Shown here piece by piece: positions 1,561 to 59,125 of a stretch of DNA of 59,125 nt; the stretch's first letter is position 1; every line of letters begins with the position of its first letter. The translations under genes were made by a program, and so were the position numbers. The notes below the pieces were generated by a model that was not told where the DNA came from, made no database searches, and saw nothing but the letters and a program-made list of their open reading frames with translations. Source of the stretch: Phlegmacium glaucopus (Eukaryota > Basidiomycota > Agaricomycetes > Agaricales > Cortinariaceae); assembly GCA_015039465.1 (NCBI GenBank), contig MU130553.1, forward strand, positions 90,882-150,006. Direction: 5' to 3'.

Positions 1561-3001
1561 TTGACTCTATTATAAAACAAAATGTGCAGGTTACTCTATC
1601 CATCATACCTGCCAAAACTCGTCGCTACAATCAGTCCTTATCTTATCAGGGTCATCCACCTAGCCACAAATATTTTTATCTCAAGCGATTGTCCTATGAT
1701 CTAGCCAGACAACAAAGCCCTCTCTGTCATATATGATTCTAACCGCCCCCGCTAGGCTTCGACCAGCCAAACAAAAAAATCATATCTTGTGACGCTCAAA
1801 TTCGAGTCAGCTCTATCAGCCGCATTTACTAAGTATCAATCAACTCGCATACCCATCATGAATCATGATCATGCAACTCTTATCTGACCGACAACGATGA
1901 AACATCAGATCTCGAGCCAAGCGCTCAAAGCTCCAACTCTCTGTCAGCTAGCGCCACAGCTGGAGACTACGGTCCAGTGGTGAATGAACTAAGCTCGAAC
2001 CCCTCAAAATAACAAAAACCAGTCTCCAAGGCCTAAATTTATGTACATATGTAAACACAGCGATCCGCTATTTTGGCACCAAAACATCCCCCTTACGTCA
2101 AACGTGGCTTTGGTCGTCGAGCACTGGTTTCTTGTCGTAAATATTCAGGCTGTTGCGTTCAAGCAGCCCTCGACAATCACAGACAATTCTAGTGATTTGA
2201 TTGGTGGGTCAATGTTAGTAACTCAAAGATGTCATAGAGCCGTCAGCATTTATTACATAATAAGGAAAATAGTCTGCATGGGTTGAGCAACGAAGGAAAC
2301 CAGTTACGGCTAGTTTGGAAAACCTATTTGGGTCAAGTTTTGTTTCGTTGACGATGCACAGACCAGCACAGACATTAGGCTCAATCAAATCCCCTCTCAA
2401 TCGCGTGGCACGAGGTACTCAGTGTTGTTTCGAATTCAATACAGCCTCCTCAATCTGTGAATCCCTCGCCGTCTCTAAGTGACCTCGAAGTTGAGGCATG
2501 CCACATTACTCTGCGCTCCAAATCATTCTTCCTCAGCTAGTAATTACGTCTTTTCATCAATATAATATATCAACAAAAAAACTTGACCTGACAAGGTTTT
2601 CCGAACTAGCTGTCAAACCTAGAAACTGAAAAACTTGAAAACCTATGTCCGATTTTCTAAAAACCTGATTGGGGAGCAAGGTACACCGAGAAACCTACAA
2701 AATTATGTCTAAATAGTATCATGAACAAACTCTACTTGTTTGAAACTGTTTGAAACGTTCACGAGTGGAAACCAATGCCGGAATCTATTTTGCCAAAGCG
2801 CTGATGGCTTAACCTTCTTCGAAGTATACCCAGATATCAATCTTGTTTGTTGAACATTACGATTCTGCAATTTCCAGTCCTGGTTTACCCCTCTCCATTA
2901 TCATATGTGAGGACTCCTTCCTAAACCTCATTCTTCAATTCCCCGGCCTGCTTTCGTTCGCTTCTCTTTCCCTGAGTCCCCACATCCTAGCGGATGACCA
3001 G
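1561..3001. other. Spacer/promoter block upstream of DUF6533 gene A
   Basis: No convincing coding sequence. The block is AT-rich and recurs with indels upstream of the other three DUF6533 genes (about 6.96-8.03, 11.93-13.92 and 16.54-18.21 kb). It contains shared stretches such as AACAAAAACCAGTCTCCAAG and TTTATGTACATATGTAAACA. It must hold the promoter of gene A, but I recognise no specific regulatory motif. Confidence 0.6.
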
Positions 3002-5032
3002 ATGCCTCAAACGGTTCCTTCTGCCCAGTCTGATATATCTGATAAGTAAGTCTTCAGATCCAATGCACATATTGAATGCCAGCGTACTCATATTTAATCT
3101 TGTTCTCAACAGCATGCGAACAAATGTAAGGAAATCCTCCATACAACCTTCCATCTTCTCCACGTGTATGCTAAGAGTTATTATTCTTGAAGTACGTTGG
3201 ATTAGCGAGCTTCGTTATCCTGCTATGGGACCATGTCGATACTTTTGCGGACGAGGTGAGATTCTCAAAACCTATGGCCATGGCACGCTCTTATTTACAT
3301 GAGCCTTCATAGGTAGAGTACATTTGGAAAGCCAAACGGAAAGGCATCTGCAAGTGTAGTCCCCCATCGCATTATTGTCAGACGTCTGATGTATCTGATT
3401 TGCAGTCATTTACCTTTTTCTCTTTGTGCGTTCATGCAAAAATTTCCAACCTCCGAGTCTACGTTCATACCACTCTCTCATCCTCCCGCAGAATCGTTAT
3501 TTCACGCCTTTGGGATTCCTTATCAACCTCCACGGTATGCAGCGGGCTAATCATAAGCCCATTTCTTCAAAGGAAGAGTTATCATCTGATTCTCCAAACG
3601 CAACCAGCATATTTCTCTCCAGGATGGACACCCGACGTAAGTTTACTAGTATCTTCTAGACCTCACTTCGTCATTTTCTAACGTAGAAAAAAAAACAGAG
3701 GTCCGGAAAAAACACAGTTATAGATAGCACCGCAAGCTGATCATGACATCTCACAGATGTACCCACTTTATCCGCTACGAGGGATGCACTTGCGCAATTT
3801 CCATCGAAGTTGTTGGACTAATGATGCTTTTACGCATCAATGCTCTCTATCCGCAACAGAAATGGATAAGCAGAGGCCTGGGATTGATTCTTATCATCGA
3901 GACCGCGGTGAACGCGTGGTCAATCAGTCGAGGCGAACGTAAGTAATTACTATATGTCTGCTTGCACGTCAATCAGAAGACATGGATTAACCCCATTACA
4001 CTGGATTTTTTTGGATGTCCAGCGGTCCTACACAATCCAACGTCAGGCGTCCATGGCAAGCTTAAAAACTACCATAAAGCTAAAGCTGCTAACACTAACC
4101 TTTCCCCAAGCCTGTACCATGATTTACGATCCTGCAATGTACGCTTGCTTCAACACATTGACATCGTTGAAACATATTCTAATTTGCTCTCCTCTAGAAG
4201 TGACTGGGCTTCGGCGTCCGCATGGATACCTCTTCTCTACGATACCATAATATTCGGATTGACGCTCTATCGAACAGTACCTCCTATTTGCCGTGAGGAG
4301 GCCAATTATATCGTTAAAAGGCTTCTTGAAGATGGCCTTCTGTACTATAGGTACCAATTCACCCTTCAATTCATACAAACTGATCTTTGGAGCTTCTCCT
4401 TTTCATCGATCCAGTGTGATATTTTCTGTCACTTTCGTGTTGACATTCATGATTGTCACTGCCCCTCCGGGTACCAAAAATATTGCTTCCCAGTAAATGT
4501 CCTGCCTACAAGTATGTTGTTGTTAGTTTACTGACCACATCTTTTTTTCTTTTCATAGGATGGAACAATTGTAAGCTAACTTCGTCTATCCATGAAATGA
4601 TTCGATCTGAAACCGTGTTATCCAACCTCTTTCTGATAGAGTAACTGTTCGTGTTCTTTCTCACTTGTATAAAGATAGCGAGAAAAAAAACTTAACTGCA
4701 CGCCTTTATTTAACAAGGTTGCAATGATGTCGAGGATAACAATCAACTTGAAGAGAGCAGGCAACCGTTTGCACGACGACGCCACCCTTTCATCACCGAA
4801 AACCCTGCTTTTTGACCGTGGACGACATCGCCAGTCCTCTTCCACACAAGGATGGGATCATCCATCCAACGCACTCGAGCCTCTACGATTTTCAGCTGTA
4901 CCTCCGAGTCTGATCACTATTGATGATATGGCTGGGCGCACTTCGTTCTCGAGAGCGGGTCGCCACGATCTCATCCATAGGCCACCACCTCTGGTCGTAC
5001 ATAGCACGGCCAAAGCTTCCCTATGTAACTAG
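3002..5032 (+). CDS. DUF6533-family membrane protein, paralogue A
   Basis: Multi-exon gene; its function is unknown, as for the family. My splicing gives about 14 exons. Exon 1 (MPQTVPSAQSDISD) is followed by a 13-nt exon, then an exon ending in the DUF6533 core (ILLWDHVDTFADE, EVEYIWKAKRK), a 20-nt exon and NRYFTPLGFLINLH. A GC-AG intron (donor GCAAGT) follows GI in the WKAKRKGI exon, and another GC donor (GCAAGC) follows the exon ending SGVH. The large central exon carries CTHFIRYEGCTC and VVGLMMLLRINALYP; the C-terminal exon carries MMSRITINLKRAG and a basic, Ser-rich tail. About seven hydrophobic segments suggest an integral membrane protein. No internal stop was found on the spliced path. 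It is the first of four tandem paralogues and converges on SMC3 remnant B. Confidence 0.8.
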
Positions 5033-5217
5033 CACCTCATCGGAAATACAAGGTTCCATCTAACTCTGGACATAAGTTACACATAATGCATCAGTAGGGA
5101 TTCGGTTAGGTTATAAATGGCAGCAAGGCATCTGGAAAATACACAAATAATCTAAGGAGTTAAAAATAAAGACAAGAGAAAATACATTAGAAGGATTGGT
5201 ATACAAAGCACAACAAT

Positions 5218-6960
5218 TTGCAACTAAACAGAAAAGGAGTGAGATCTCTCAAAATCGCTAGCCACTTACTTGAAAGTTCTCTCAATGGCTTCCTTCTAGC
5301 GCTGACCAAGGTCTTCTACGAGCTCCTCAATCGAATTGGCCGATTTGTCGAGCTCTTCGGAGTTGATCATGCTGTTTTGCGAAATTCGTGTACTGTCCAA
5401 ACGCCTCCTTGTTCACATATGCAAATGTCTTCAATCCCTCATTCACAACATGAAGTTTTTTGACGAGATTTGAGCGAAGAAGGATGAGATCAGGGGGTGC
5501 AGGTGACACAAAATGAAGAGCCTACCCTTTCGAGCTTTTCATGGACTTTTCGAAAGCCTCTTCTAGAAGGACACCGAGGTCAGAGATGTCCCTGTTAACA
5601 TTTGGCGCCGAGCCAGATATCTCTCGGTAGTCTTTTGTTGCTTAGAAATTGAGCGGCTGTCTTCATTCTATGAATCTTTTCCAGTGCCAATAGGTGCTCC
5701 TCAACTTGTTCATCACCTTCCTTCTACTTCACCTTCCTTCTCCGTTACTATCAAAAGAGGAGGGATATTTAAATCCGCAAAAGCGCACAAGGTCATGAAT
5801 GGGCTCACTTTGTAACTTCTTGCCTATTGAATCAATCGAGCTATTCAGAACCTTAAGCTTTCTCATCCGGCGCCTCTAAATCGTTCTCTGACCATCCAGC
5901 TTTAATCGGAGTCCTTCCTTGCGACGCTGCAAACGCTCCTTGAGCTCAATCTCAACGCCATTTTTGCGGCCTTCCAACTATATCAACCGAAAAAAGAGAA
6001 GGTTAGCGGGTGACAGACCACTTTAATGGTCCGATGTACCTCATGCTTGCGTTTACTCAACTCAATCATCTCTTTGCGCCTCCTCTCAACCTCTTTCCCA
6101 AGGTTAACAATCATCTGCTCCTCTTCACGCGTAATCCCATTTGTCAACGGACTAGAAAGCTCATCGGTATATCCAGCGACCTTGACTTCAAGCCCATTCA
6201 TCTCTGTCTCTAATTCATCCGCATCTTGCTCCAACTTCCCAATCCGTTCCTTCAACTTCTCCTTCGAATTCGACAGCGCAGTGCCTTCATCAAGCAATCT
6301 TTCACGCGAATATCGAATCTGGTTCTGTTGACCTACGAGAACTGCCATTCGATCACTGACTTGTGTAATCTCCTGTTCGAGCTTGGTGGTAGAGGTTTTC
6401 GCCTCTTGCGATTTAGTGTTCTCTGTCTCGTACTTCATTCGCCATGTCTGCACATTCTTGATGGCCTCAATGCGAGATCGACGGACATCATGATATCCTC
6501 CAGTAAGGGCTCCCTTTCGGTCAACTTTGTCACCATTCAAAGTGATAGTGTTAATGCCATGACTTTTGACGTAGGCAGCAGCAATGGTGGGGTCTCGGCA
6601 CACGCACGTCTTGCCGGAGACTTGCTGGAAGACGCTTTCTCGTATTTGGGATCAAACTTAGCTTTTCAATGAGAGGCTCAGCATCCGGTGAATTTGGAGC
6701 TTGAGGGTTTTCTGCTTGAGTCGGTTCAGAGGCATGAAGGTCACTCGGCTCGTTCTCTCCTTGGGCATAACGTCAAGAACTTTGGAGGCGGTTTCATCTG
6801 TGTCAACGATGACATGGAACAAGCTAGAAATACTGTCAGGTAAATGACGTGGATGTTATAAAACAGATGTTTACCTATTTCCTGCCGTAAGAATCTGGGG
6901 ACTGTGACTTCGAAAAGACGATATAAACACCTTCATACCATCATGATCAACGTACACTGC
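5218..6960 (-). pseudogene. SMC3 remnant B
   Basis: Minus-strand copy of SMC3 from the C-terminal coiled coil back to the hinge. The best-preserved part (about 5983-6603) reads through VDRKGALTGGYHDVRRSRIE, ITREEEQMIVNLGKEVERRR and ELSKRKHEV without a stop. The rest is broken: the segment at 5260-5400 contains stops and frameshifts where the intact gene reads [13 protein letters not shown], and several short blocks are missing. Both ATP-binding lobes are absent. It lies between DUF6533 genes A and B, tail-to-tail with gene A. Confidence 0.85.
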
Positions 6961-20517: not shown

Positions 20518-25032
<4,515 letters not shown>

Positions 25033-25903: not shown

Positions 25904-28900
25904 TTAAACGTCCGTGCCGTTCTCTGCTTCCCAAACGTCCAAGGCTTCGGTGTCCTCAAGCATTCTACCTGACAACCATTCGTCGTGGTCGCGGTCATAA
26001 CCCACCCATCTCACCAAGTATTGTTTCCCCCGTCCGCGACGTCGAGCATCAACAATCTTGTCGATCATGTTTTCCTCTGTACCGTCTTCGGTGACAACAG
26101 CACCTGGTCGAGTGAATTCGCGGTCTGGGAAGAGGGAGGGGTCATTCGGGACGAAGGGTTTCAGGAGGCTGGAGTGGAAACCTGGGAAGGTCTGTGGGTT
26201 GTTTGGGAGGCGCAGCGTATATTCGGATTTCTCAGGGAAGGTCTGGATGATTGTGTAGGGCCCATCATTCCGGGGCATGAACTTCGCAACGCGTCTTTTG
26301 TCCTTGCGTTTGTAGTTCCGGCGCCGGTTCTCTGTAGACAACATGACTAAATCACCTTCCTTGTACACAATCTCGGGTGCCCGGTGTTCATTCGCATGGT
26401 ACGCCTGTCGAATTTTTGCTGCAAGTAAGTTATCCTGGGCCTCAAGTTTGACATCAAGCTCCAAACGTTCGATGATTTGCCGTGCATCAACCTCAGCAGT
26501 CGTTAAATTGGCAGAGGCAGGGATCAGAGGGGGAATGAGACGGGGTGACCTGCCAGTCTTCAATTGGAAAGGCGAGAATCCGGTCGATGCGTTGACTGTG
26601 TTCATGATCGCGAAACGGATTCGGGGGAGCCTGGAGAGCCAACCCTTTTGGTTGTTGTCGACATGGTAGCGAATGGCTTGGTTGAGTGTCTTGTTTGTCC
26701 GCTCACTTGCACCATCTGTCTGAGGGTGGTATGCGGTCGACATCTTCAACTTGACACCCGTAAGCTTGTGTAGTGCTGACCAGAGCTCGGATGTAAAGAG
26801 GGGGTCACGGTCGGTGATAATCTGTCGCATGAGGCCATTTTCGCAGTACCATTCGTCAAAGAGGACAACAGCAATTTCAGCAGCAGTAGCGGTGGAGTGC
26901 ACTGGTGCGAGCCGCACTTCAGCCCCAAGAAGGTCTGTCATGGTGAGGATGGTGTCTTTTCCACCTTCTTCGGGCAGGGGGCCAACAAAGTCTAGTGCCA
27001 CAGCCTCGAAGCGGGCATCGGGTACTGGTAGAGGGTGTAGTGGGCCAGTGGGTTTGCTCGTGCGGCTCTTGTTGCGTTGACATGGGGAGCATGATGGGAT
27101 GTAGGCCTGTTCCAGGTCTCGTCGCATGTTTGGCCAGTAATATGAGTCACGTAGTGCCTCATAACTCTTGTCGAAACCAAAATGGCCCAGCGTGTCGTGG
27201 GCGAGGTTGTAGAAGAGTTCACGAACACAGGGTATGTTTGGAATGAGCAACCGACGACCAATGTATAGGAGGTTGTTCTCTTTTCGTGCGCCCTCGATAC
27301 TACCAGCCTTGATGTCTTTTGTCAGCTGTTTAGCGAAATCATCGTCCTGGTAACCAGCAATAATGTCCCTGAGCAGGGATTCATCAGCCGTGATGTCCAA
27401 GGTTGCGAGGGCAGCTGTTTGTAGCTGTGGAGATGGAGATCTTGTGTGGGCGAGGGCACATGCGGCAAACATCGGGCTTGGAGTAGCATCAGGCATGCGA
27501 GAGAGGGCGTCTGCGGCGGTATTGTCCTCCCCCCGGATGTATGTGATGTCATAATCAAAATCGGCTAAATACATAGACCAGCGCATCTGTCGACGAGACA
27601 TGTCTTTCTGAGATTGGAAATACTCGAGGGTACGATGGTCAGTGTATATCTTGAAATGTGTTCCAAGAAGACTTGTACGCCACTTCTTGAGGGCCTTGAC
27701 AATGGCTAGGAGTTCCTTCTCGTGGACAGGATAATTCTTCTCAGCATCGTTTAGTTGATATGAGTCGTAGGCCACTGGTCGTGCAGTGTCCCAAGTTTCT
27801 CCAAAGCTCAGCACTGCTCCCGTTCGGCGGTCACTGGCATCTGTTGTCACGAATATTTTCTTCGTCTGATCCTCGTAATCAATCACGGTCAGGCATTCTG
27901 TGCTGGTGACCAAGGCTTTGATCGCTTCGAAAGCTCTCTGGTGTTCGGGTGTCCATGCAGGGAAATCTCGATCACAGTCTTTGGTGGTAAGTGGTGTTAG
28001 GACACTGGTATGTTCAGCAAGCGCAGGGAGGAAGGCAGCAATGTAACGTGTGAGTCCTAAGAAACCTCGTACATTGGTTGCGGTGGTGGGCTGTGGCCAG
28101 TCAAGGATACGGTCAATCTTTCGAGGGTCTGCTTGTATCCCCGCTGCCGATATTTTGTGTCCGAGGAACGAGATGTCGGTGGAAAAGAGAGTTGTTTTAG
28201 CACCATTACAAAACAAATTGGCTCTACAGAGTGCTTCCAGTACTTTTGCAACATTAACTTCATGTTCTTCCACCGTTTGTGACCAGATTATAATATCATC
28301 AAGGTAGACATGACAGATTTTCCCAATGAGTTCCCGAAGTGCATCAGTCATGCGGCGCTGATGAGTCGATGGCGCGTTACATCCACCCATCGGCATAACA
28401 GTCCATTCATATAGTCCCCATGGGGTTCGAACAGCAGTAAGATGGATGTCATCAGGGTGGACGCGTGTTTGGAAGAACGAATTAGTCATGTCCATTTTTC
28501 CAAAGATCTTTCCTCGTGCACAATCAGCTAAGATGTCGTCTACCCGCAGTAAGGGAAAATTGTCCCTTATGGTGTTGGCATTTAATTCCCGGTAATCATT
28601 TACCCAACGGGGCGGTACAGTCAGGTCAGGGGCCCCATCACGGTATTTTGGGACACAGAAGGCAGGGGAGGCATGTTCAGATGACGAAGCGCGTATGCGG
28701 CCTGCATGTATGTGTTCGTCAAGGAGTTTCTTCCATGAGTCATGATATTTCTTTGGGGCTGAATAGCTGCGGCCTTTGACGGCCTTGTTGGGGTCTTTCA
28801 GACGGATTCGGTGGTAGATGTGGTTCGGAACATCAGTGGTGGTATCCGGTAAGCGCAAGGGGAAACGGTCCTCATATTTGTATCTCATTTCTGCATCTTT

Positions 28901-30760
28901 TCTCGCAAGTGTTTCCTGGAGAGAAATAGTCTCAATACGTTCACGGACTGCTGCCATGATAGGGGCTGGTAGGAGGTAACCTGCAAGCGCTGGCTCTGAT
29001 GTGGTCTCCAGGGTCTTGGCAGGTGATTTACGTGGTTTTGGAGGTGTTGGGGGTGGCGTCACTCGTTCTGGTGCCCATTCTCGTGTGGGAATGACTGGGT
29101 TCAATAGATCGTACCCTGTTCGCTTATCTTTAGCGGTGCGAGCGTTGATGTCAATGACAATATGTTGTGAAGACAAGAATGGCATTCCGAGGATAAGAGG
29201 TACAGGTAGCCCAGTATTAACCTTAGCCCGGAAAACAGTAGATCTCCATCCCCCATTCCCAGACGATAACTCCATCTTCACATATTCTTTGCATGGCAGT
29301 GGTGACTCGGAAAGTGACGAAAGGTTGTCTTCCTCGGGTGGCAAGGGATAGCGACGCAGACCAAGTTTTTCAACGAGGGTAGAGCTAATCACTACAGAGG
29401 GGCAACCAATGTCAAGCATTGCTGGTACAGGGATGGGAAACTCGGAGATATTGGGCCCAAAGGCGTCCAATGTGGCAACGAGGTGGGGAATAGTAAGAGG
29501 TGAGGGGTCCACGTACGAGTCAGTTTCCTCATCGCAAGCCTCCATGCGAGAGGATATTACAGCTGCAGCTGGAAGACGGGAGGATGAGGCGCTTGCTGGT
29601 GGCTTAGAAGCCAAAGCCATTTCGAGGGTGAGTGGAGCATACATCTCTGCATCTGGCCAGGTGTTATTGGCTGTCATGGGGCAGTCTTTGGCCCGATGTC
29701 CTGTATAGAATTTACGACAGCGGGTGCATCCTTCGTGTTCATTGAGGAGTCGTTTTTCTTTGTCATGCAGTTTGGGGAGGTAGCGGCGGGCTGTGTCGCT
29801 GTTAGTTCCCGTGTTCACAGTTTTGGTAGTGCGAGGGTCTGAGAGGCGACTAAGGAGGTCCTTCTTGTCACCTCGTCTAGCAGCACGGGCAGCGTTACTG
29901 GCATCAATGAGGCGCTGGGTACGTGCATTCTCAGCCTTGATCCGTTCATCACGCTCCTTGACTTCCGTAGACCAGGCATCTAGCTGGCTAGAGATAGTTG
30001 GCTCATTGAGGAGGTTGATCTTGAGCTCGTTGTTCAGGTTGGCTTCCAGCTGGACCTTCAAGCCATCGTTGGTGAGCGCATGTGAAGGTGAGGATGTGGT
30101 GAGGATGGCGTTCAGGTTTTCGAGCTCAATCTTCCAATCGATGAAAGCACGTTCTCCCTGTTTCGATGAGATGATTGTGTCCCGAATTTTGTGAGCCCAG
30201 TTTTTCTCAAGTACGAGTTTGGAAAGTTCCTCGAGATACTGGTTGAGCGTGAGTGCATCGATGCGGGCCTGCCCAGCCTGGTACCAAGCGACGAGACGCG
30301 GTTCGAGCATGGCTTCTGCAACGAAGCTGACAATTTCAGTGGGTTTTTTTTCAGCGTGCTTCATGTAACGTTTGCACGCGAGTGACCAAGACTGAAGGAT
30401 AAGGGGTGTGATCCTTCCAGCGGTGAGGACCGGGCAGTCCTTCATTTTGGCGGTGTGGACTTCAGCAAGGGGTTGTTTTTCAGCGTCGTCCATTTTGAGG
30501 TATTTTTTCGTGATACCCGGGTTCAGGAATGTTAGGGTTGGTGATCCGGCAGAAGAGTCTGTTTCCGAGAAATCGGACTCGTTAGGGTATGGGTGTGGTG
30601 ACGATGGGATTTCCGTGATATTCGAGCCCAGGGGTTCTCGACGTGCAGTAGCGGTAGTAGTGCTGATGGGAGGTAATCCAAGTGTGGCTCTCCTCTTCGC
30701 TTCCTGTCTCGTGAGCAAGGGAGTAGGTGTAGACGGCGTGCGAGACAGTTTTGGCTTCAA
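25904..30760 (-). CDS. Chromovirus 1 Gag-Pol polyprotein with chromodomain
   Basis: One uninterrupted 1618-codon reading frame carrying all functions for retrotransposition. In order (approximate residues): Gag with a CCHC-like knuckle CTRCRKFYTGHRAKDC (about 343-358); aspartic protease around AMLDIGCPSVVISS (about 445), where the usual DSG/DTG is DIG; reverse transcriptase with the active site VYLDDIIIW (about 817); RNase H with TTDASDRRTGAVLS (about 967); integrase with the zinc motif HDTLGHFGFDKSYE…CSPCQRNKS (about 1187-1225) and catalytic positions in ALDFVGPL, TDRDPLF and GASERTNKTLNQ; and a C-terminal chromodomain KQYLVRWVGYDRDHDEWL (about 1578-1595). A fused Gag-Pol without a frameshift is common in chromoviruses. 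The DIG protease triad is unusual and may affect processing; otherwise the protein looks functional. Confidence 0.95.
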   Translation of the reverse strand: MKPKLSRTPSTPTPLLTRQEAKRRATLGLPPISTTTATARREPLGSNITEIPSSPHPYPNESDFSETDSSAGSPTLTFLNPGITKKYLKMDDAEKQPLAEVHTAKMKDCPVLTAGRITPLILQSWSLACKRYMKHAEKKPTEIVSFVAEAMLEPRLVAWYQAGQARIDALTLNQYLEELSKLVLEKNWAHKIRDTIISSKQGERAFIDWKIELENLNAILTTSSPSHALTNDGLKVQLEANLNNELKINLLNEPTISSQLDAWSTEVKERDERIKAENARTQRLIDASNAARAARRGDKKDLLSRLSDPRTTKTVNTGTNSDTARRYLPKLHDKEKRLLNEHEGCTRCRKFYTGHRAKDCPMTANNTWPDAEMYAPLTLEMALASKPPASASSSRLPAAAVISSRMEACDEETDSYVDPSPLTIPHLVATLDAFGPNISEFPIPVPAMLDIGCPSVVISSTLVEKLGLRRYPLPPEEDNLSSLSESPLPCKEYVKMELSSGNGGWRSTVFRAKVNTGLPVPLILGMPFLSSQHIVIDINARTAKDKRTGYDLLNPVIPTREWAPERVTPPPTPPKPRKSPAKTLETTSEPALAGYLLPAPIMAAVRERIETISLQETLARKDAEMRYKYEDRFPLRLPDTTTDVPNHIYHRIRLKDPNKAVKGRSYSAPKKYHDSWKKLLDEHIHAGRIRASSSEHASPAFCVPKYRDGAPDLTVPPRWVNDYRELNANTIRDNFPLLRVDDILADCARGKIFGKMDMTNSFFQTRVHPDDIHLTAVRTPWGLYEWTVMPMGGCNAPSTHQRRMTDALRELIGKICHVYLDDIIIWSQTVEEHEVNVAKVLEALCRANLFCNGAKTTLFSTDISFLGHKISAAGIQADPRKIDRILDWPQPTTATNVRGFLGLTRYIAAFLPALAEHTSVLTPLTTKDCDRDFPAWTPEHQRAFEAIKALVTSTECLTVIDYEDQTKKIFVTTDASDRRTGAVLSFGETWDTARPVAYDSYQLNDAEKNYPVHEKELLAIVKALKKWRTSLLGTHFKIYTDHRTLEYFQSQKDMSRRQMRWSMYLADFDYDITYIRGEDNTAADALSRMPDATPSPMFAACALAHTRSPSPQLQTAALATLDITADESLLRDIIAGYQDDDFAKQLTKDIKAGSIEGARKENNLLYIGRRLLIPNIPCVRELFYNLAHDTLGHFGFDKSYEALRDSYYWPNMRRDLEQAYIPSCSPCQRNKSRTSKPTGPLHPLPVPDARFEAVALDFVGPLPEEGGKDTILTMTDLLGAEVRLAPVHSTATAAEIAVVLFDEWYCENGLMRQIITDRDPLFTSELWSALHKLTGVKLKMSTAYHPQTDGASERTNKTLNQAIRYHVDNNQKGWLSRLPRIRFAIMNTVNASTGFSPFQLKTGRSPRLIPPLIPASANLTTAEVDARQIIERLELDVKLEAQDNLLAAKIRQAYHANEHRAPEIVYKEGDLVMLSTENRRRNYKRKDKRRVAKFMPRNDGPYTIIQTFPEKSEYTLRLPNNPQTFPGFHSSLLKPFVPNDPSLFPDREFTRPGAVVTEDGTEENMIDKIVDARRRGRGKQYLVRWVGYDRDHDEWLSGRMLEDTEALDVWEAENGTDV

Positions 30761-37307: not shown

Positions 37308-37620
37308 TCTAGGTTGAGTGCTGTGTTGTCAATTGGTGCAGCAACATTTGCAGATATCTTTGATCCCAAAGAATGTGGTAAAAAGGTGAATTTTAGGATG
37401 GACATCATTTTATCATCTTGATGACACTGATATTATATTCAAAGATGGGAATATACTACATGGCCCTGCTTCTTGGGCTGGTGTGGCAGTGCAATATGGC
37501 ACTGTGAATATATAGAGGTTACATAGATAGATAATTAAATAGATTAGATTAGATAGTAAGGATATCACCTGACTATGGGATATCCTAGCTACTTAGGCCC
37601 CATTTGGGATCCTGGTTATG

Positions 37621-38200
37621 TGTTAAGTTTAAAACAAAGAGTCACGTCGGAGTTACTCTGGAATGGACAGAACGGAACTGGAACAGTAAGCAGAAAGGAT
37701 GTTGGCCTCAGCGTGTATGCTGTGCCGCCCAGCTCTTACAGTGTCCTGATTTTGGAAATGGAAGAGAAATGAATAAGATGGAAGACCTCAGTGACTTAGA
37801 GGACAAACAAGAGGAGGAAACAAAGTTGATATTTGAAATAAGGGAAAACATACAAGTTTTGAGTACTTAAATAAATAAAGGAATAGCAACCGAAATATAA
37901 AAGATAAATATAAGTGCTGCGTTCTGCTCCCGGAAAGGTCCTGCATTCTTGGGTGAATAATCCATGGCAGGTATGCTGACTGATGGTGGGAAGGATGATG
38001 ACAAAGAATAGTGGTAGTGGTGAAGAAGTGGTAATGAGTTTGGAGTGACGTCGGAAGAGTCGGAATGATATGGAAAAGTCTCGGAGTTGGACGTAGGTGG
38101 AGTAGAACTGGAGACAAGGGAGAGTACTGGAAAGGAGTACAGACTACTGGAAACAACTCTGACGGAGTTGGACCAGAGTAACATATAATGGAATGTAACA
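37621..38200 (+). repeat. Solo LTR, family R1, copy 1
   Basis: 580-bp solo LTR starting TGTTAAGTTTAAAAC and ending GGAATGTAACA, with a 5-bp duplication TTATG on both sides (37616-37620, 38201-38205). The same family recurs at 48601-49735 (two copies in opposite orientations) and inside the backwards block after 57005. Confidence 0.85.
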
Positions 38201-44109: not shown

Positions 44110-46120
44110 GTCATACGGTTTCTGCGCAAAATCATTTCATCTAAAAAGAAGGTATACTTATCAACCAACATCTCCCGACAAATTGCATGGTAGCTTCCAA
44201 GCCAAACATTGGTCTGCTCCGCAATAGATGAATTGAAATACCAGCCCTTGTTGTCTTCAGAGACGAGCTCAGGGTATGCAGCAGGGTTGCAGTTCTCCTG
44301 GAAAAATGTGTCGGTCTCTGAGTGTTTTGACTTGAAGTGGAAGACATCGACAGTAAGCCCTCTATGTCGTTAAAGAAGGGATCTTTGCCTCGGACTATGC
44401 TAGCGAGCGTGCAGTTGTTGTCAAAGAAGATATGGTCAGGCTTGATGTCTTCATGAAATGTATGCTTGATCATCTCCTGGTTCAATGTGAGTGAGAAAGT
44501 CCATTATACTAACAATCTTTGCTTACAATAACGCTCCCAACACCCTCTGCCCCATAAAAGGTTTCCTGAGCAATAATCATCCCACAGGGTGCGACAATTA
44601 TTTGCTCGTTATGTGTGCATCTCCGACCTAACTGTGCCTGGATCTGTTGCTCCCTTATACTCCGTTCAGAGCCACTGATCTCAAAATCCTCCACCTCATC
44701 TTCTACATCAGCAAGGTCTGTACCATCTTCAGCAATCACATTATTTGGGTGAGCCACAAGGGCACGCTGAAGGCGTTCCTTGAGCTGAAAGCTAGCCTGC
44801 CCCCTTTCCTGATGAACCCACCCAACCTCTTGATGTGCAGGCTCAGAACACATGCGGCTGTCAGCCACAATTGGAGACTCACAGCCAACCACTGCACAAA
44901 TTGTATTGCGGTGGGCATCTTGGGGGCAGTAATGATGCCGATTGTTCTCGAGTGGGACCTTGCAGTTATGCACTGCACAGCATGGACACCCAACAGTAAC
45001 TCCATCAATAACTACAACCCAGACTTTTTTCCCATCTTGGTAGACACGTAGACACTTGTTACAAAAATGGCGTAGCTCCAGTTGCCCATAGAGACGGAAG
45101 CGGAGATTTCGAGCATGGAGAACATTAGTGAAACGGTCCTTTTGGGCACCTGTATGTGGCACTGCAAGCGTCTTCAACTGACTCTGATGGTCTTCCAAGA
45201 GTGCTAGAATCACAAAAGCATCCCAGACCTGTTCAGTAGTGACTGAAAACCCGAATGCCCAATCGCCAGGTGGAACTGTGTCAGAGAGAGAGAGATTGTA
45301 TAAGTGTGCACAATTGGTGGCTGAGGTCCTGTATCATGAATGAGGATGCAGAAAACAAGATGTGTAGAATAAATACTTACCATGAAACCAACATAAGCAT
45401 AATCCAGAGCTGGACAAGCCGTTTCTCAGCAAACTGGTGCTCGCCCACCTGAATTATTCATAGTAGGTGTGAATGCCGTCTTTGACCTGGAAGTTGTGAT
45501 GGTAGTTGGTCCGGCATTCTAGCGGGAAAGTGTAGGACATGTCTAAATATGTCTGATGTAAAGTACTAGGTGAAAACCTACCGTCACAATAGAGATGAAC
45601 AGATTGGACAGGAAGTGCCCCCTTGTCCATTGTGTATAACACAGCCTGCCGTTGCTCTTCCTTCTTCAGTAACTTCCCAGTTCTGTTGCGTGGACAGCTT
45701 GCATTGGTACAGGTGTGTTGAGGAGGATAGAGCATATAAGCATCTGGAAAATAAATAGTGCAATAAATCAGAGGACCCTAGTAATTGCTAATACTGTGAA
45801 AAATGAACGTACAAAGTCCAAGGGAATGACCATGTGCTGCAAAATGTTGTATGAGACTGTCCTCGAGGCTCTGTGCATCATACCAGATTGTGGTTTTCAG
45901 CATGTCCCAACAGGCCTCAACACAAGCAACAGAGATGCCACAGCTATTTATCAAGAAAGTGGATATTGTTGGTGGGAGTACATCTGGAGGATTAAGTGCT
46001 AGTACAGATGATGGCTGTGCAAGAAGAATGTCGTCCTTCAACCTTGAAGCTAGAGCAATGAACCATTATACTTGACCAAAAGAGAGCTCAGGGTGCTGCT
46101 TAGTGAGGAGAACTGCATCC
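44110..46120 (-). pseudogene. CxC5/CxC6 KDZ-type transposase-like protein, frameshifted
   Basis: Minus-strand multi-exon gene. N-terminal part: IALASRLKDDILLAQPSS and LPPTISTFLINSCGI. CxC5 cluster: HTCTNASCPRN and CRTNYHHNFQVKDGIHTYY (about 45.46-45.71 kb). Middle: LRHFCNKCLRVY. CxC6 cluster: CPCCAVHNCKVPLENNRHHY and CPQDAHRNTICAVVGCESP (about 44.8-45.0 kb). C-terminal KDZ-like part: HIFFDNNCTLA, then VFHFKSKHSETDTFFQENC and GWYFNSSIAEQTNVWLG, in a frame shifted by one base at about 44366. The shift and the unclear start make it non-functional here. Family membership is clear from the cysteine layout; catalytic residues were not verified. Confidence 0.7.
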
Positions 46121-48374: not shown

Positions 48375-50623
48375 GGATGAACATGCTGGTTCCCTGCCTT
48401 CGTTTTTCGCATTTTTGGCAGCGACGTCGCTCTATGTTGCCTCTTACACTGACTATTTGCTGTTTTATTGCATAGATAAGTCTCTGGCTATTTGGTCATT
48501 GCCCCTACTGTCCCAGAAGCTTCCTAAGTGCCTTGGCTATATTTTGCTCGTACAATTGCCCCCTTTTCCAGCAGTACCTGGACGACATTATGTGTTCTGC
48601 TGTTACATTCCGTTATACATTACTCCGGTCCGACTCCGTCGGAGTTGTTTCTGGTAGTCCATACTCCTTTGACAGAGTTTGATCGGAATGGAACCACGGA
48701 ACGGGAAAGGACTATAGCCTCAGCGTATATGCTGTGCTACTCTAAACCTTCGTGTCCTAATTTCAGAGTAAGAACGGAACGGAGTGGAACCGGAAGTTGC
48801 AGTAACTTAGAGGAAGACCAGGAGGAGGAAACTATGTTGATATTTGAACTGAGGGAAAACATACAAGTTCGAGTACTTAAATAATAAAAGGAATTGCAAC
48901 CGAAATATAAAGTATAAATATAAAGTGCTGCGTTCTGCTCCCGAAAGGTCCTGCATTCTTGGGGTGAATGATCCATGGCTGGTGTGCTGACTGATAGTGG
49001 GAACATGATGACAAAGAAATAGTGGTAGTGGCAAAGAAGTGGTAATGGGTGCGGAGTATAGATGGAGGAGCCGGAATGACATGGAAAGGTCTCGGAGGTT
49101 GAATGTAGAAGGAGTAGTTCAGGATGTGAGGGAAAGCACTGTATAGAGTACGGACTACCGGAGACAGCTCTGATGGAGCTGGACCGGAGTAATGTATGAT
49201 GGAATGTAACAGTACTCTCCCTTGTCTCCAGTTCTACTCCACCTACGTCCAACTCCGAGACTTTTCCATATCATTCCGACTCTTCCGACGTCACTCCAAA
49301 CTCATTACCACTTCTTCACCACTACCACTATTCTTTGTCATCATCCTTCCCACCATCAGTCAGCATACCTGCCATGGATTATTCACCCAAGAATGCAGGA
49401 CATTTCCGGGAGCAGAACGCAGCACTTATATTTATCTTTTATATTTCGGTTGCTATTCCTTTATTTATTTAAGTACTCAAAACTTGTATGTTTTCCCTCA
49501 GTTCAAATATCAACTTTGTTTCCTCCTCTTGTTTGTCCTCTAAGTCACTGAGGTCTTCCATCTTATTCCTTCTTCTTCCGTTCCAAAATCAGGACATCAT
49601 AGGAGCTAGGCGGCACAGCACACACACTGAGGCCAACGTCCTTTCCGATTACTTGTTCTGTCTGTTCCATCCATTCCATCTGTTCCATCCATTCCAGAGT
49701 AACTCCGACGTGACTTCCTTGTTTTAAACTTAACATCTGCCTCCCTTTTGCTCCCTTTCACCATCGGTCACGTGTATAGTCATGCTTTTTCCATATTTGG
49801 TAATGCTCACTCGTCTAGGAGTTGTAGGTACGTCCACTGCCCAGACCGACGTCCCCTTACACTACACCAAATTGTTCTGTGTCGAATCGTCATTGTTACC
49901 CTACCAGTCACTCCTATCCAGAAACAATCACCGGATCAAGAAGTTACTTAACACCATTGGGTATTTTAGGTCGCTGATCATTTATATTCTTTTATTTCTC
50001 TTTGGTTCCCTCAAACACTCTGTTTCCTTTATTTTTGATACATTTACCATCGCTCCTTGATTGCCCCTCTATACCACATGTCTCCTGCCAGTCCTCTTTC
50101 ATTTATCTCCCACTATCCCTGATGTTTTGTCTCCCCATTTTGCCTAGTCCCTCTTGGACTCCTGTTTCATCATTTTGATTTGTTTTATAGATACCCATGT
50201 GCAACTTAGCCATGTGATCTCCTCTACCTACTATAAAAACCTCCTGTAATTTAGTTACAAAGGACAATAAGAAAGTATTTGCCTCTCTCCCCAGAGTATA
50301 GAATTAAGTCTAGTCATTGTCTCTCTCGTCATTTGCCTTTGTTTCATTGCATTTTTACTGCAAGTCGCCCATACAGCGACTATACTTTGTCACCGCATTG
50401 CCCCTTTGTCACTGCATCTCCCCTTTGTCACTGCATCGCCACTTTGTTACTTCGTCACCCTTTTGTCATTACATTGCTCCTCATTTCACTCGTCTCATAT
50501 CTCGTCGCCCTACCTTAGTTGGAACCTTTCTGCATATACTTGACTCAGTGTTTAGGCCATTGAAGCCCTGAGCTGCATCACACCCTCAGTTGGTACAGCA
50601 CCTAGCGTACTGACAGTGTATCA
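48375..50623. mobile_element. Insertion in the RT domain, unclassified, with nested LTRs
   Basis: 2249 bp between direct repeats CCGG (48371-48374 and 50624-50627) that splits the RT codons …FLKP|DKCKF…. About 1.1 kb is the element itself (a TATAAAAACC box lies at about 50231); the rest is the nested R1 LTR composite. No terminal repeat or coding region was recognised, so the class is open. Confidence 0.55.
48601..49735 (-). repeat. R1 solo LTR interrupted by a second, opposite R1 copy
   Basis: The outer LTR is in reverse orientation (TGTTACATTCC…AACTTAACA) with a 5-bp duplication TCTGC (48596-48600, 49736-49740). At about 48673-49210 a truncated forward R1 LTR is inserted, so about 0.5-kb arms face each other head to head at about 49211. 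Any read-through transcript would fold into a long hairpin. Confidence 0.75.
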
Positions 50624-54075: not shown

Positions 54076-55143
54076 ATTCACATTATCATTTGCAGTTGCC
54101 AGCTGTTCTTGCAATCATTAAACACAACTCAAACAAAGGTCACTCAGGTGACTGTATTACTCATCACCTTGATTTTTATCTTGTCTTCTTTATTTGGCTC
54201 TTATCTCCTATGTTTCATTACCAATTTACCAGATCCATGTGACTCTGCTATTGCGCACCAATACTGATTGGTAGTGTGAGAACAAAGCTTAAAAGTTGCC
54301 ATCATGAAAATAAGCGGACTTTGAATTCACTTACCTATTTTGGAAGCAGCCCTGAATCACGTTCCTGGTCAATAAAATCATTCATTCAACATTATCATCC
54401 TCATCACTCATCATATCCTCAATGTCTTCCACTATGCTCTCAATCATTTACACTATCAACATGCTCCTTAACATCTACCATCCATTTGTCCCTTGGCTAG
54501 TGATGCAACAAAGCAATCAATCTACTATTTGCATTGGTCATTGGCTTGCGTTTGATCGCATCTATGGCCCATCATTTCAAGAACGGCCCATTTATGGACG
54601 CATCAGCTACATCTCCCATTATGTCAAAGGCTTTGTCATTGTTGTTGTGGCTATGGACCCACAAGTCTTCCCCTCAGCTATCTATCTTGCCATACCTCGC
54701 TCCTGGATCTCACTCAGTCCCCTATCCTCAATTATCTACCTCTTATCTTATCATTCACTGCCAAAACCATCATTCACGTGGTACCTAAAGCCTTCCCACC
54801 CTCTTTATGACAATTTAGGAAGTCCAGGAGGATCATGACTAAGCAGGAATTGCAGATGAATCAGCAGCAGAGGATTATTCTCGCAGAGTGTCAAGTGTTA
54901 TCAAGGCTGCGTGACATGGGATCATGGGCAAGTAGTATTTTCTTGGGAACAACGCTGCGCCTTTCAAGTGTTGACTCAGGACCTTTCACATATTTTACAT
55001 GACCACCCACCTATAGAGTTGATATATTTTTTCTATGGGACTGTGTACACTGCCTTCTCTTCTTTTCTCTCGCACTTTGACACTTTACAGATTCTTTTAC
55101 TGTTCCTTTTTCTTTTCCATTGTTCTTTTCTTCTTGCAGCTAT

Positions 55144-55471
55144 TGTCAGGGGACACTCATTGTGTCCGCCTCTATGTTTGCTTAGTATGTCTTACCTTCA
55201 CTTACTCTATGATTGTACCCCGTACCACATCCCTTATCCTGCTCCTTGCATGCTCCCTTCCATTGTTGTAGTAGTTGTCCCTTCACCGATGACATCGCAA
55301 CAGATGTCAGTTTATATTTAGGTTATCTTTACCTTGTCCTACCTTCTATTACGTCCTAGCCGTATATAGTCAAATTGGCTCCCACGCCTGTAGTATATAG
55401 ACAAAAGGTGGTTATCAAAGATAACCACCTTTGTATTCAACTTGATTCCCAGGTTCTAACGTCCCCTAACA
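55144..55471 (+). repeat. Solo LTR in repeat E
   Basis: 328 bp, TGTCAGGGGAC…GTCCCCTAACA, flanked by GCTAT/GCTGT (4 of 5 bases alike). The inverted copy of E at about 56.93 kb lacks it and shows the intact target CGCAGCTGTCC, so the insertion postdates the duplication. A perfect 13-bp hairpin AAAGGTGGTTATC/GATAACCACCTTT lies at 55404-55432. Confidence 0.8.
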
Positions 55472-55649
55472 GCTGTCCTCTCTTCATCATTCTTTCTTTG
55501 ACAGCGCGTACTTCTTTCTTTTTTTATTGTTCTACATAGCCTCATCCTTAGGGTATAAATACTGCTCTTTTGTACCAGGATAGGTAGTTTCTCCCAATTC
55601 ATTCTTACTCCCCACAGTCATCCTCTCAGTGGAATTCCAGTGAATTCCT

Positions 55650-55855
55650 CCCTCAAGTTCGCTTTTTCAGCTTTTTATCTGTTACTGTCCCCCACTGTCA
55701 ATTGCCATAGTCTTTCTGAAGACTCCCTCTTATTATTCCTCATCCTCTTCCTTAACCCTCTAAGTTCGCTTTTTCAGTCCCTTACTGTTAACCCACTGTC
55801 AACTGCTATAGTCTTACTGAAGACTCTTTCTCATTCATCCTCATCCTCCTTATCT
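55650..55855. repeat. Two-copy tandem duplication of about 105 bp
   Basis: Two adjacent units beginning AAGTTCGCTTTTTCAG and ending in a …GAAGACTC…CCTCATCCTC stretch. The same pair occurs inverted at about 56550-56745. Confidence 0.65.
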
Positions 55856-56293
55856 ATATTCTCACCCCCTACCTCTGTGTGTTACAAGTCAAGGTTAAAC
55901 CTTCCCTAAACAAACAACAGGGAGTCTCTTGACCTAAAGACTGGTCCACTGCTCTCTGGTTGGTGTTTAATAACAACCCAAACAACAATTTATACCACTT
56001 TAACCCATATTTTACATTCTTGTTTCACCTTTCCACACTTAGCTATTGCTAGTTACTATATTATTAGCAGTAGCAAGTAAGGTAAAGCAAGACAGGAGAA
56101 TGGACAAAATTACCATAGTTTTGATCCCACCTTTGGAACATTGTACTAAGCTACTCTTGCACTCCTTTAAAATCATCCTGCACACTTCACTTTTTCTGCG
56201 CATTATCTTGCACTTTAAAGCGAACCTTCGCACCTCATAAAACCTCACTTTCACCTATTGAAGAGAACTACATCAACCCCACAAACTACATAA

Positions 56294-56404: not shown

Positions 56405-56410
56405 TATAAA

Positions 56411-57004
56411 TTGTTGTTGTTGTTGTTATTAAACACCAACCAGAGAGCAATGGACTAGTCTTTAAGTCAAAAGCCTCCCTGTTGTTTGTTTAGGGAAGGT
56501 ATAACCTTAGACTTGTAACACACAGAGGTAGGGGGTGAGAATAGAGATAAGGAGGATGAGGATGAATGAGAAAGAGTCTTCAGTAAGACTATAGCAGTTG
56601 ACAGTGGTTGACAGTAAGGGACTGAAAAAGCGAACTTAGAGGGGTTAAGGAAGAGGATGAGGAAGAATAAGAGGGAGTCTTCAGCAAGACTATAGCAGTA
56701 GACAGTATGGATTGACAGTAAAGGGATAAAAAAAGTGAACTTGAGGGAGGAATTCACTGGAATTCCACTGAGAGGACGACTGTGGGGAGTAAGAATGAAT
56801 TGAGATGAACTACCTATCCTGGTACAAAAGAGCAGTATTTATACCCTAAGGATGAGGCTATGTAGAACAATAAAAAAAGAAAGAAGTATGCGCTGTCAAA
56901 GGAAGAATAATGAAGAGAGGACAGCTGCGAGAAGAACAGAACAATGGAAAAGAAAAAGGAACAATAAAAGAATCTGTAAAGTGTCAAAGTGCGAGAGAAA
57001 AGAA
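56411..57004 (-). repeat. Repeat E, inverted copy (correctly written part)
   Basis: Reverse complement of 55060-55975 without the solo LTR at 55144-55471. Shared features include TATAAATACTGCTC, the about 105-bp tandem pair and GCACTTTGACACTTTACAG. The match stops at 57004 in the middle of …GAGAGAAAAGAA. The expected continuation (GAGAAGGCAGTGTACATAG) is found only at the far end of the window, written backwards. Confidence 0.85.
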
Positions 57005-57380
57005 TTCTTCGATTCAACTATAAGCTCGACTCCTTTTGTATGTTCAAAGTTCACGAATTTATTATTTTCCTTATCGTTGGTTTTATATTTTCTATTTATA
57101 TTTCACGACACAAGACGAGGGTCTTCCAGGACGTAAGAACCCACTTATTAGGTATCGCCCACACTACTGACTATCACCCTTTCACTACTGTTTCTTTATC
57201 AACAATACCACTTCTACACCATTACCCAAACCTTATTGTAGCCTTCTCGACCTTACTATGTCTCTTCAGAGCCTCGACCTGCATCCTCCTCATCTAGGTC
57301 TCTGTTCCCTTTCATGACCTTGCCTCATACCTGATGACCTCTGTTGAGGCTACCTCGACCTGACCTCATTGTATATTGAA
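57005..57380. repeat. R1 LTR fragment, written backwards
   Basis: The complement of this stretch follows the R1 LTR at 37830-38190 (landmarks GGAAAACATACAAG, ATAAATATAAAGTGCTG, GGTGAATAATCCAT, GGAGTAACATATAA). It ends before the terminal GGAATGTAACA and is truncated at the start. Confidence 0.8.
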
Positions 57381-57589
57381 TGCGTTCAGTACTGATCCCG
57401 TTACCACATTAGTCCCTGTTACACAAGCTTCAGAACCACCATCTCTCGACGTTCTGTTAGGAATAGGTATATCTTTTTGAGTACTTAGTGTCGTCCATAA
57501 CGACCTACACGTTATAAAGACGTAAACGGGAAGTTTACATCATTCTTTACATTCTTTCTTTATGACTTTGTTTTCTTTTACGTGTAAAA

Positions 57590-58306
57590 GTAGAAGAGGT
57601 GGGGTTTCTTTCTCTGGAAAGAAATCGCTAAACACTTGGCGAACAACGTGGTTCAACATGAGGAGAACAACTAACGGAGGAAACTTAAACCCACCCGTTT
57701 CATCTAAGTGTATAAAACGATTGTACTACACGGTTTATTGGAAAAAATTAAAGACCGTTTTCCTACTTACGAGTAACTTTTGGATTCGTCCCTTAATCAT
57801 CTACAACTTACTACCCTTACATTGTAAGATGGTCTTACGAGTATAGAGCTAGGCCCCTTATAAGATTTTGTCTACTAGTTATTGACTACCCAATTTTTCT
57901 ACATACTTTGTTGGACCGAGATCTAGTAACGGAAGTTAAGAAACTATAAGTCACTGACATAACAACTCTTACTCTCATCGGAGGAACTCCAGAGACAGAG
58001 AAGCACCCTTCCGTAATTGTTCCCGATGTACGGAAGAGTACAATAAGAAGCGGTAGAGTTCGTATCAGACGGTCGGACCCCCCATCATAAAGTACCAACA
58101 ACCAAACCCAAGACGTAGGGAACCACAGAAACTTATCACTACTCGGGCTACCCATCTACTTAGTAACAGAAGTAAAAGTAGTCGGAGTAGTCAATGTAAC
58201 AGAGGGGACTGTCTGAGTAACTCCAACAGTAGAAGTTCAACTACGGGTATACTAACCGTCCGTCGTCACAAACGGTCCCGGAGTCCCACTCCACCTACAT
58301 GTCCTA
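57590..58306. pseudogene. DUF6532-like gene visible only on backward reading
   Basis: Read from about 58306 down to 57590 without complementing, the bases encode a protein with YYPPGWQTMLEMAKNNMRRH, VALVNAFPRRDRDLKEATLI and NNTVTEYQRIEGNDLEP. A GT…AG intron (57914-57864 in window coordinates) splices to YSPDRDMSILV, and later YNLVQQAVHKSLKKGLFLWG appears. This pattern is typical of the fungal DUF6532 family (unknown function, common near transposons in Agaricomycetes). After the first intron a stop follows in a short distance, so the gene may be degenerate or have further introns. As written in the window it encodes nothing. Confidence 0.7.
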
Positions 58307-59125
58307 CTAACGCGATAACGCGTGGTTATGACTAACCATCGTACTCTTGTTTCGAATTTTCAACGGTAGTACTTTTATTCGCCTGAAACTTAAGTGAATG
58401 GATAAAACCTTCGTCGGGACTTAACACAAGGACCAGTTATTTTAGTAAACAAGTTACAATTGTAGGAGTAGTGAGTAGTATAGGAGTTACAGAGTGTGAT
58501 ACGAGAGTTAGTAAATGTGATAACTGTACGAGGATTTGTAGATGGTAGGCAAACAGGGAACCGATCGCTAAGTTGTTTCGCTAGTTAGATGATAAACGTA
58601 GCCAGTAGCCGAGCGCAAACTAGCATAGAAACCGGGTAGTAAAGTTCTTGCCGGGGAAATACCTACGTAGTTGATGTAGAGGGTAATACATTTTCCGAAA
58701 CAGTAGTAACAACACCGATACCTGGGTGTTCAGAAGGGGAGTCGATAGATAGAACGGTATGGAGCGAGGACCTAGCGTGACTCAGGGGATAGGAGTGAAT
58801 AGATGGAGAATAGAATAGTGAATGACGGTTTTGGTAGTAAGTACACCATGGAATTCGGAAGGGTGGGAGAAATACTGTTAAATCCTTCAGGTCCTCCTAG
58901 TACTGATTCGTCCTTAACGTCTACTTAGTCGTCGTCTCCTAATAAGAGCGTCTCACAGTTCACAATAGTTCCGACGCGCTGTACCCTAGTACCCGTTCAT
59001 CATAAAAGAACCCTTGTTCCGACGCGGAAAGTTCACAACTGAGTCCTGGAAAGTGTAAAAACTGTACTGGTGTGCGGATACCTCAACTATATAAAAACGA
59101 TAACCTGATACATGTGACGGAAGAG

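What the first reader, a model, noticed from the sequence alone, without database searches (positions are those of the whole stretch)
57005..59125. 2.1-kb terminal block is string-reversed (3'->5'), not an inversion
Direct comparison shows same-direction complementarity: 58321 onward is the complement of 54254 onward without reversal, and 57030-57380 is the complement of the R1 LTR without reversal. The upstream inverted copy of repeat E breaks off at 57004, and its next expected bases are the last bases of the window read leftward. Natural inversion reverses and complements, so no known DNA process yields this. The block ends exactly at the window end, which points to a coordinate- or strand-handling error in assembly, scaffolding or window extraction, or to deliberate alteration.
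Basis: seen in the sequence. Interest (0 to 1): 0.95.

Follow-up and report, generated by a model that had tools for sequence, protein, structure and literature searches.

The report
Backwards-written DNA at assembly gap edges
The last 2.1 kb of this window is written back to front (reversed but not complemented) right beside an assembly gap, and dozens of other reversed repeat copies occur in the same genome assembly, so this is most likely a strand-handling error of gap-filling software and not biology.

Summary
57005-59125 matches nothing else in the window as written or as reverse complement, but matches strongly when only reversed or only complemented. A Markov model with the tested chunk held out marks exactly 57005-59125 as the only reversed stretch in the window. 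Flipped in place, the block continues 57004 base-perfectly against three natural copies.

The contig does not end here: a 4,384-base N run follows. The flipped block overlaps the far flank of that gap, from its first base, at 99.4% over 1,603 columns, so about 517 bases would bridge it (inferred).

It is not a window-extraction error and not unique. Two repeats in string-reversed form match at 43 and 42 places, together on 49 of 259 contigs (capped lists). In 5 of 20 other loci a flipped block joins exactly with its outer base beside an N run.

Best explanation: a gap-filling or end-extension step inserted sequence with half a reverse complement applied. It fits a PBJelly-type tool, but tool and raw reads are not identified. 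As biology it is not a real feature. Seven paper searches aimed at the error showed no account of it.

The parts
57005..59125 (.). String-reversed block (neither strand reads in natural order); its high end abuts a 4,384-base N run that lies outside the window
58313..59125 (.). Part of the block that is repeat E in reversed string form (complement without reversal of 54247-55059)
57007..58608 (.). Part of the block whose string reverse equals the right flank of the N gap (window-equivalent 63510-65112) at 99.4%
57007..57377 (.). Part of the block that is the R1 repeat in reversed string form
56405..57004 (-). Left flank: normally written inverted copy of repeat E, cut at the seam 57004/57005; the next expected base is 59125
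54247..55994 (+). Normally written copy of repeat E used as reference
37817..38188 (+). Normally written R1 copy used as reference
48828..49192 (+). Normally written R1 copy
49210..49522 (-). Normally written R1 copy in the opposite orientation

Best explanation
The block at 57005-59125 is genomic repeat-bearing sequence written back to front beside a scaffold gap, most likely by a gap-filling or contig-end-extension program that applied only half of a reverse complement. Shown: flipping the block in place restores base-perfect continuity with the left flank; the flipped block overlaps the far flank of the N run; string-reversed copies of the same two repeats recur on many contigs; and reversed blocks in other fetched loci abut N runs on the left or on the right, or stand where no N is left. 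Inferred: the program held the extension on the opposite strand and complemented it without reversing (or reversed a correctly stranded one; the two give the same string), and this likely hid the overlap with the far flank, so that the N run was shortened instead of closed.
For: Only the reverse-only and complement-only forms match. Seam exact in three natural copies. Overlap with the far flank begins at its first base after the N run, 58608 to 63510, 99.4% over 1,603 columns. Mirror case on the right side of a gap: L027, flipped 6184..4571 equals 1-1612 at 98.8%, N run 1613-4322. In 5 of 20 loci fetched for a reversed R1 hit (L013, L021, L024, L029, L031) a flipped block joins at step 0 or 1 with its outer base exactly beside the N run. 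N runs lie within 17 of these 20 stretches, and L014, one of the other three, ends at its contig end. Reversed forms match at 43 places on 31 contigs and 42 places on 30 contigs, union 49 of 259 contigs. An unselected-for case: the left edge of the gap on the window's other side also scores reversed. PBJelly is described as extending flanks into gaps and leaving fewer N if a gap is only reduced (PMC3504050, section 5).
Against: No raw reads, assembly log or organism name is held, so the step and the tool are not shown. The 20 loci were chosen for a reversed R1 hit, so they give no rate. In 6 of these 20 the HMM calls no reversed segment over the seed repeat (L013, L014, L015, L016, L018, L019), and in L019 it calls the normally written R1 copy instead (score -19). 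9 of the 20 gave no exact-join pair. 7 of 17 chosen gap edges and 8 of 15 other edges do not score reversed (below -5) over up to 1,200 bp. Some reversed stretches do not touch an N run (L028; L017 and L030 have no N in the fetched stretch), which needs closed gaps or more than one round of filling (inferred).
Confidence: 0.9

Rival explanations
1. The sequencing data themselves held reversed strings (for example an instrument or basecaller that emitted 3'-to-5' reads), and the assembler built this stretch from them.
For: It would also give string-reversed stretches in many places.
Against: A reversed read could not align to its flank, yet the flipped block starts at exactly the next base after 57004 in three copies. 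In the window the reversed stretch is confined to the gap edge.
Confidence: 0.03
2. Window extraction error or deliberate alteration of this one window.
For: The block ends exactly at the window end.
Against: The held whole assembly has the same string, and reversed copies stand on 48 further contigs. The window end is the start of an N run.
Confidence: 0.03
3. Another assembly step than gap filling (scaffold building, patching of contig ends, or a later format conversion) reversed pieces next to gaps.
For: The final string does not tell which program wrote it; no metadata are held.
Against: The outer end of the block coincides with the N run and the inner end continues the flank without a lost or added base, as expected for an inserted extension.
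Confidence: 0.04
4. A biological string reversal (parallel-strand copying or the like).
For: None found.
Against: No known process gives it (established knowledge); the overlap with the far flank of an assembly gap has no biological reason.
Confidence: 0.003

Closest known systems
Flank extension and gap reduction by long-read gap fillers (PBJelly, PMC3504050, section 5 read)
   Same: Sequence is added at contig ends facing a gap, on either side; the N run is shortened if the gap is not closed.
   Different: The paper section describes no reversal. Here the added sequence is back to front, and the tool used for this assembly is unknown.
Ordinary mis-oriented contig or false inversion in a scaffold
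   Same: A strand error at assembly joins.
   Different: An ordinary mis-orientation leaves a reverse complement, which a standard search still finds. Here neither strand matches.
Mirror repeat
   Same: Two stretches that are string reverses of each other on one strand.
   Different: The pair here faces an N run, and in the window only this block scores as reversed, so it is a writing error and not a sequence symmetry.

Membership tests
Gap-filling or end-extension artefact | Block abuts an N run or a contig end | tested here: met
   N run starts at 59126, directly after the block. Elsewhere: exact in 5 of 20 loci; not in L028, and no N in L017 and L030 within the fetched stretch
Gap-filling or end-extension artefact | Correctly written, the block continues the flank without lost or added bases | tested here: met
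   Step 1 in three copies, 30 of 30 bases in two of them
Gap-filling or end-extension artefact | Recurs through the assembly | tested here: met
   Reversed forms of two repeats on 49 of 259 contigs, window's own included
Gap-filling or end-extension artefact | Raw reads contradict the written order | not testable with these tools
   No reads held
PBJelly output | Project metadata name the tool | not testable with these tools
   Genome G000 is unnamed. One paper passage says JGI hybrid fungal assemblies used ALLPATHS-LG and PBJelly (PMC7550596), not tied to this genome
Genomic inversion | Block equals the reverse complement of related sequence | tested here: not met
   No hit for the reverse-complement transform
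Window extraction error | The string is absent from the parent assembly or confined to this window | tested here: not met
   100% match over the 1,196 bases tested in the parent contig; recurs elsewhere

The most novel reading that the evidence does not exclude
A general gap-filling pipeline of its period wrote back-to-front extensions into many deposited genomes, so that a share of gap-edge sequence in public assemblies is unreadable to every standard search; a string-reversal scan would reveal and localise it.
Probability: 0.35. Interest if true: 0.6.

Novelty: not a real feature. Interest (0 to 1): 0.33.

Why it matters
String-reversed blocks cannot be seen by ordinary searches of either strand and would look like novel or orphan sequence to repeat and gene annotation (the second part is inferred). 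For the two repeats tested, the first look lists 60 reversed against 1,135 normal candidates and 62 against 749 (candidates, of which 40 were scored in each), so some percent of those copies may be affected in this assembly. The fault can be detected with a simple directional Markov score, and in this window the flipped block implies that a gap shown as 4,384 N is about 517 bases.

Tried and rejected
An HMM trained iteratively on the fetched loci was rejected: the loci were chosen for reversed R1, so training likely absorbed the reversed form, and it called normally written R1 copies in the window (37618-38197, 48594-49734) reversed. One search replaces it, trained only on stretches of C195 taken as normal, with the tested 5-kb chunk held out for the window. 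One search also made calls that I did not explain: L013 35-375 (-21), L015 9269-9728 (-24), L026 9512-9901 (-13), L019 7323-8220 (-19, a normally written R1 copy).

tblastn of the open 1,618-aa polyprotein of 25904-30760 against string-reversed loci gave one hit, in L026 (27.7% over 184, E 1.2e-18). By its coordinates it lies at about L026 5150-5689, inside a stretch whose string reverse matches L032 and L024 at 96%, although the HMM did not call that stretch.

Species identification by an SMC3-like ORF gave proteins without organism names; not resolved. A paper search for '259 scaffolds' did not identify the assembly. Seven paper searches aimed at the error showed nothing relevant in their listings; for, 20 of 157 papers were listed. 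Of a gap-filler review (PMC10815858) I saw passages only, with 0 occurrences of 'reverse' and 'complement'.

An unbiased rate over all gaps was not obtained. One search is the nearest: of 15 gap edges not chosen by a reversed-R1 hit (four of them at the two gaps that bound the window, the edge at 59125 included), 7 score below -5 over up to 1,200 bp, against 0 of 88 held-out normal stretches of the window (2 of 88 negative, minimum -4.6). The other 11 lie in chosen loci, and the edges at 1 and 63510 were part of the training sequence. Of the 17 chosen edges 10 score below -5 and 7 do not (L013, L015, L018, L019, L024, L025, L026).

Full report
What was checked. The block 57005-59125 was compared with 1-57004 in four forms. 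As written and as reverse complement it matches nothing at E<=1e-3. Complemented without reversal it matches repeat E (54247-55059, 813 bp, 94.2%, no gaps) and the R1 repeat (37817-38188, 85.8%; 48828-49192, 82.9%). Reversed without complementing it matches the oppositely oriented R1 copy (49210-49522, 86.3%) and 59 bp at 48612-48670. A directional test that needs no alignment agrees. With an order-5 strand-symmetric Markov model and the tested 5-kb chunk held out, the HMM returns 57005-59125 as the only reversed segment in the window (score -160), and 0 of 220 sliding windows of the same length in 1-57004 are negative.

Where it lies. C195 is 738,212 bases long, so the contig does not end at the window end. 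The window is bounded by N runs on both sides, 3,844 bases on the left and 4,384 on the right. The tool warns that withheld stretches also read N, so that the runs are assembly gaps is inferred, chiefly from the flank overlap described next.

The seam. On the left flank the inverted copy of repeat E stops at 57004. In three natural copies the next base pairs with 59125, the last base before the N run (step 1 in all three). The first 30 flipped bases are identical to two of the copies and differ at 3 positions from the third. On the other side, flipped 58608 to 57007 equals the right flank of the gap from its first base, 63510 to 65112, at 99.4% (8 mismatches, 1 indel in 1,603 columns). The last two bases of the flipped block, 57006 and 57005, fall outside that match. 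The flipped block therefore reaches across the gap, and 517 bases would suffice where 4,384 N are written. That last step is inferred: the overlap could in principle be with another copy of the repeat, but the match starting exactly at the gap edge makes this unlikely.

It is systematic. The string-reversed R1 piece has 43 matches on 31 contigs and the string-reversed piece of repeat E 42 matches on 30 contigs, together 49 of 259 contigs. Both include the window's own copy, and both are lower bounds because 40 candidates are scored. The first look found 60 and 62 candidates, against 1,135 and 749 for the normally written forms. The first eight loci were short; of the seven other than the window's own, five have N within 1.5 kb of the reversed R1 piece. 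I then fetched about 10 kb (one 5.5 kb) around 20 of the R1 matches. N runs lie in 17 of the 20; L014 ends at its contig end. In 14 of 20 the HMM calls a reversed segment over the seed repeat, and in six it does not (L013, L014, L015, L016, L018, L019), though in L016 it calls one about 200 bp away. For L013 the exact join shows the reversal all the same. Joins at step 0 or 1 with the outer base exactly beside the N run were found in 5 of 20 (L013, L021, L024, L029, L031; in L013 and L021 other copies gave steps 2 to 11). Nine of 20 gave no join pair. L028 has an exact join (3949 to 5783) with normally scoring sequence between the block and its N run, and L017 and L030 have reversed segments with no N in the fetched stretch, which looks like fills that closed a gap (inferred). 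L027 is the mirror case on the right side of a gap, with a 98.8% overlap to the far flank. The window's other gap also has a reversed-scoring left edge (segment -6999 to -4043; -16.5 over 1,200 bp), there in a tandem-repeat-like stretch. Of the repeat E matches other than the window's own, two fall inside fetched loci by their coordinates (C145:781058 in L030, C206:330346 in L025), both inside HMM-reversed segments; the other 39 were not read.

Mechanism. For a true extension T, complementing its opposite-strand form without reversing gives T back to front, and so does reversing T alone; the final string cannot tell these apart. Either is half of a reverse complement. A flank-extension gap filler that shortens the N run when it cannot close a gap, as described for PBJelly (section 5 of PMC3504050), would give the observed layout. 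That a given program has such a bug is not shown by any search. Differences in three overlaps are mostly substitutions (8 against 1 indel column, 17 against 2, 9 against 3), so the inserted sequence was likely a consensus or came from accurate reads.

Verdict. Observation confirmed. As biology this is not a real feature. As a data-quality finding it is systematic in this assembly as held. Seven paper searches aimed at the error and one aimed at the assembly showed no account of it in their listings. Of papers I saw: passages of PMC7550596 and PMC10815858, and outline with abstract and section 5 of PMC3504050; of the rest, listings only.

Noticed in passing
L025 around 5418-5895 and L026 around 5120-5720: Reversed stretches that join normal sequence without reaching the N run, as if two fills had been laid one after the other; a polyprotein hit in L026 reads only in the string-reversed form.
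   Followed up: partly
left of the window, window-equivalent -6999 to -3844 (L011): Tandem-repeat-like stretch beside the other N run that also scores as string-reversed.
   Followed up: partly
25904-30760 (-): Open 1,618-aa ORF with reverse transcriptase, RNase H, integrase zinc-binding and chromo domains, a gypsy-type retroelement by recall.
   Followed up: no
5983-6603 (-), 22176-22997 (-), 24353-24889 (-): Several SMC3-like ORF pieces in one window: 22176-22997 has SMC3-named relatives, 24353-24889 a sub-cutoff SMC_N match, and 5983-6603 resembles the former by eye; possibly repeated gene fragments.
   Followed up: no
44509-45213 (-): ORF with a CxC6 domain associated with KDZ transposases; by recall this points to a basidiomycete fungus.
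   Followed up: no
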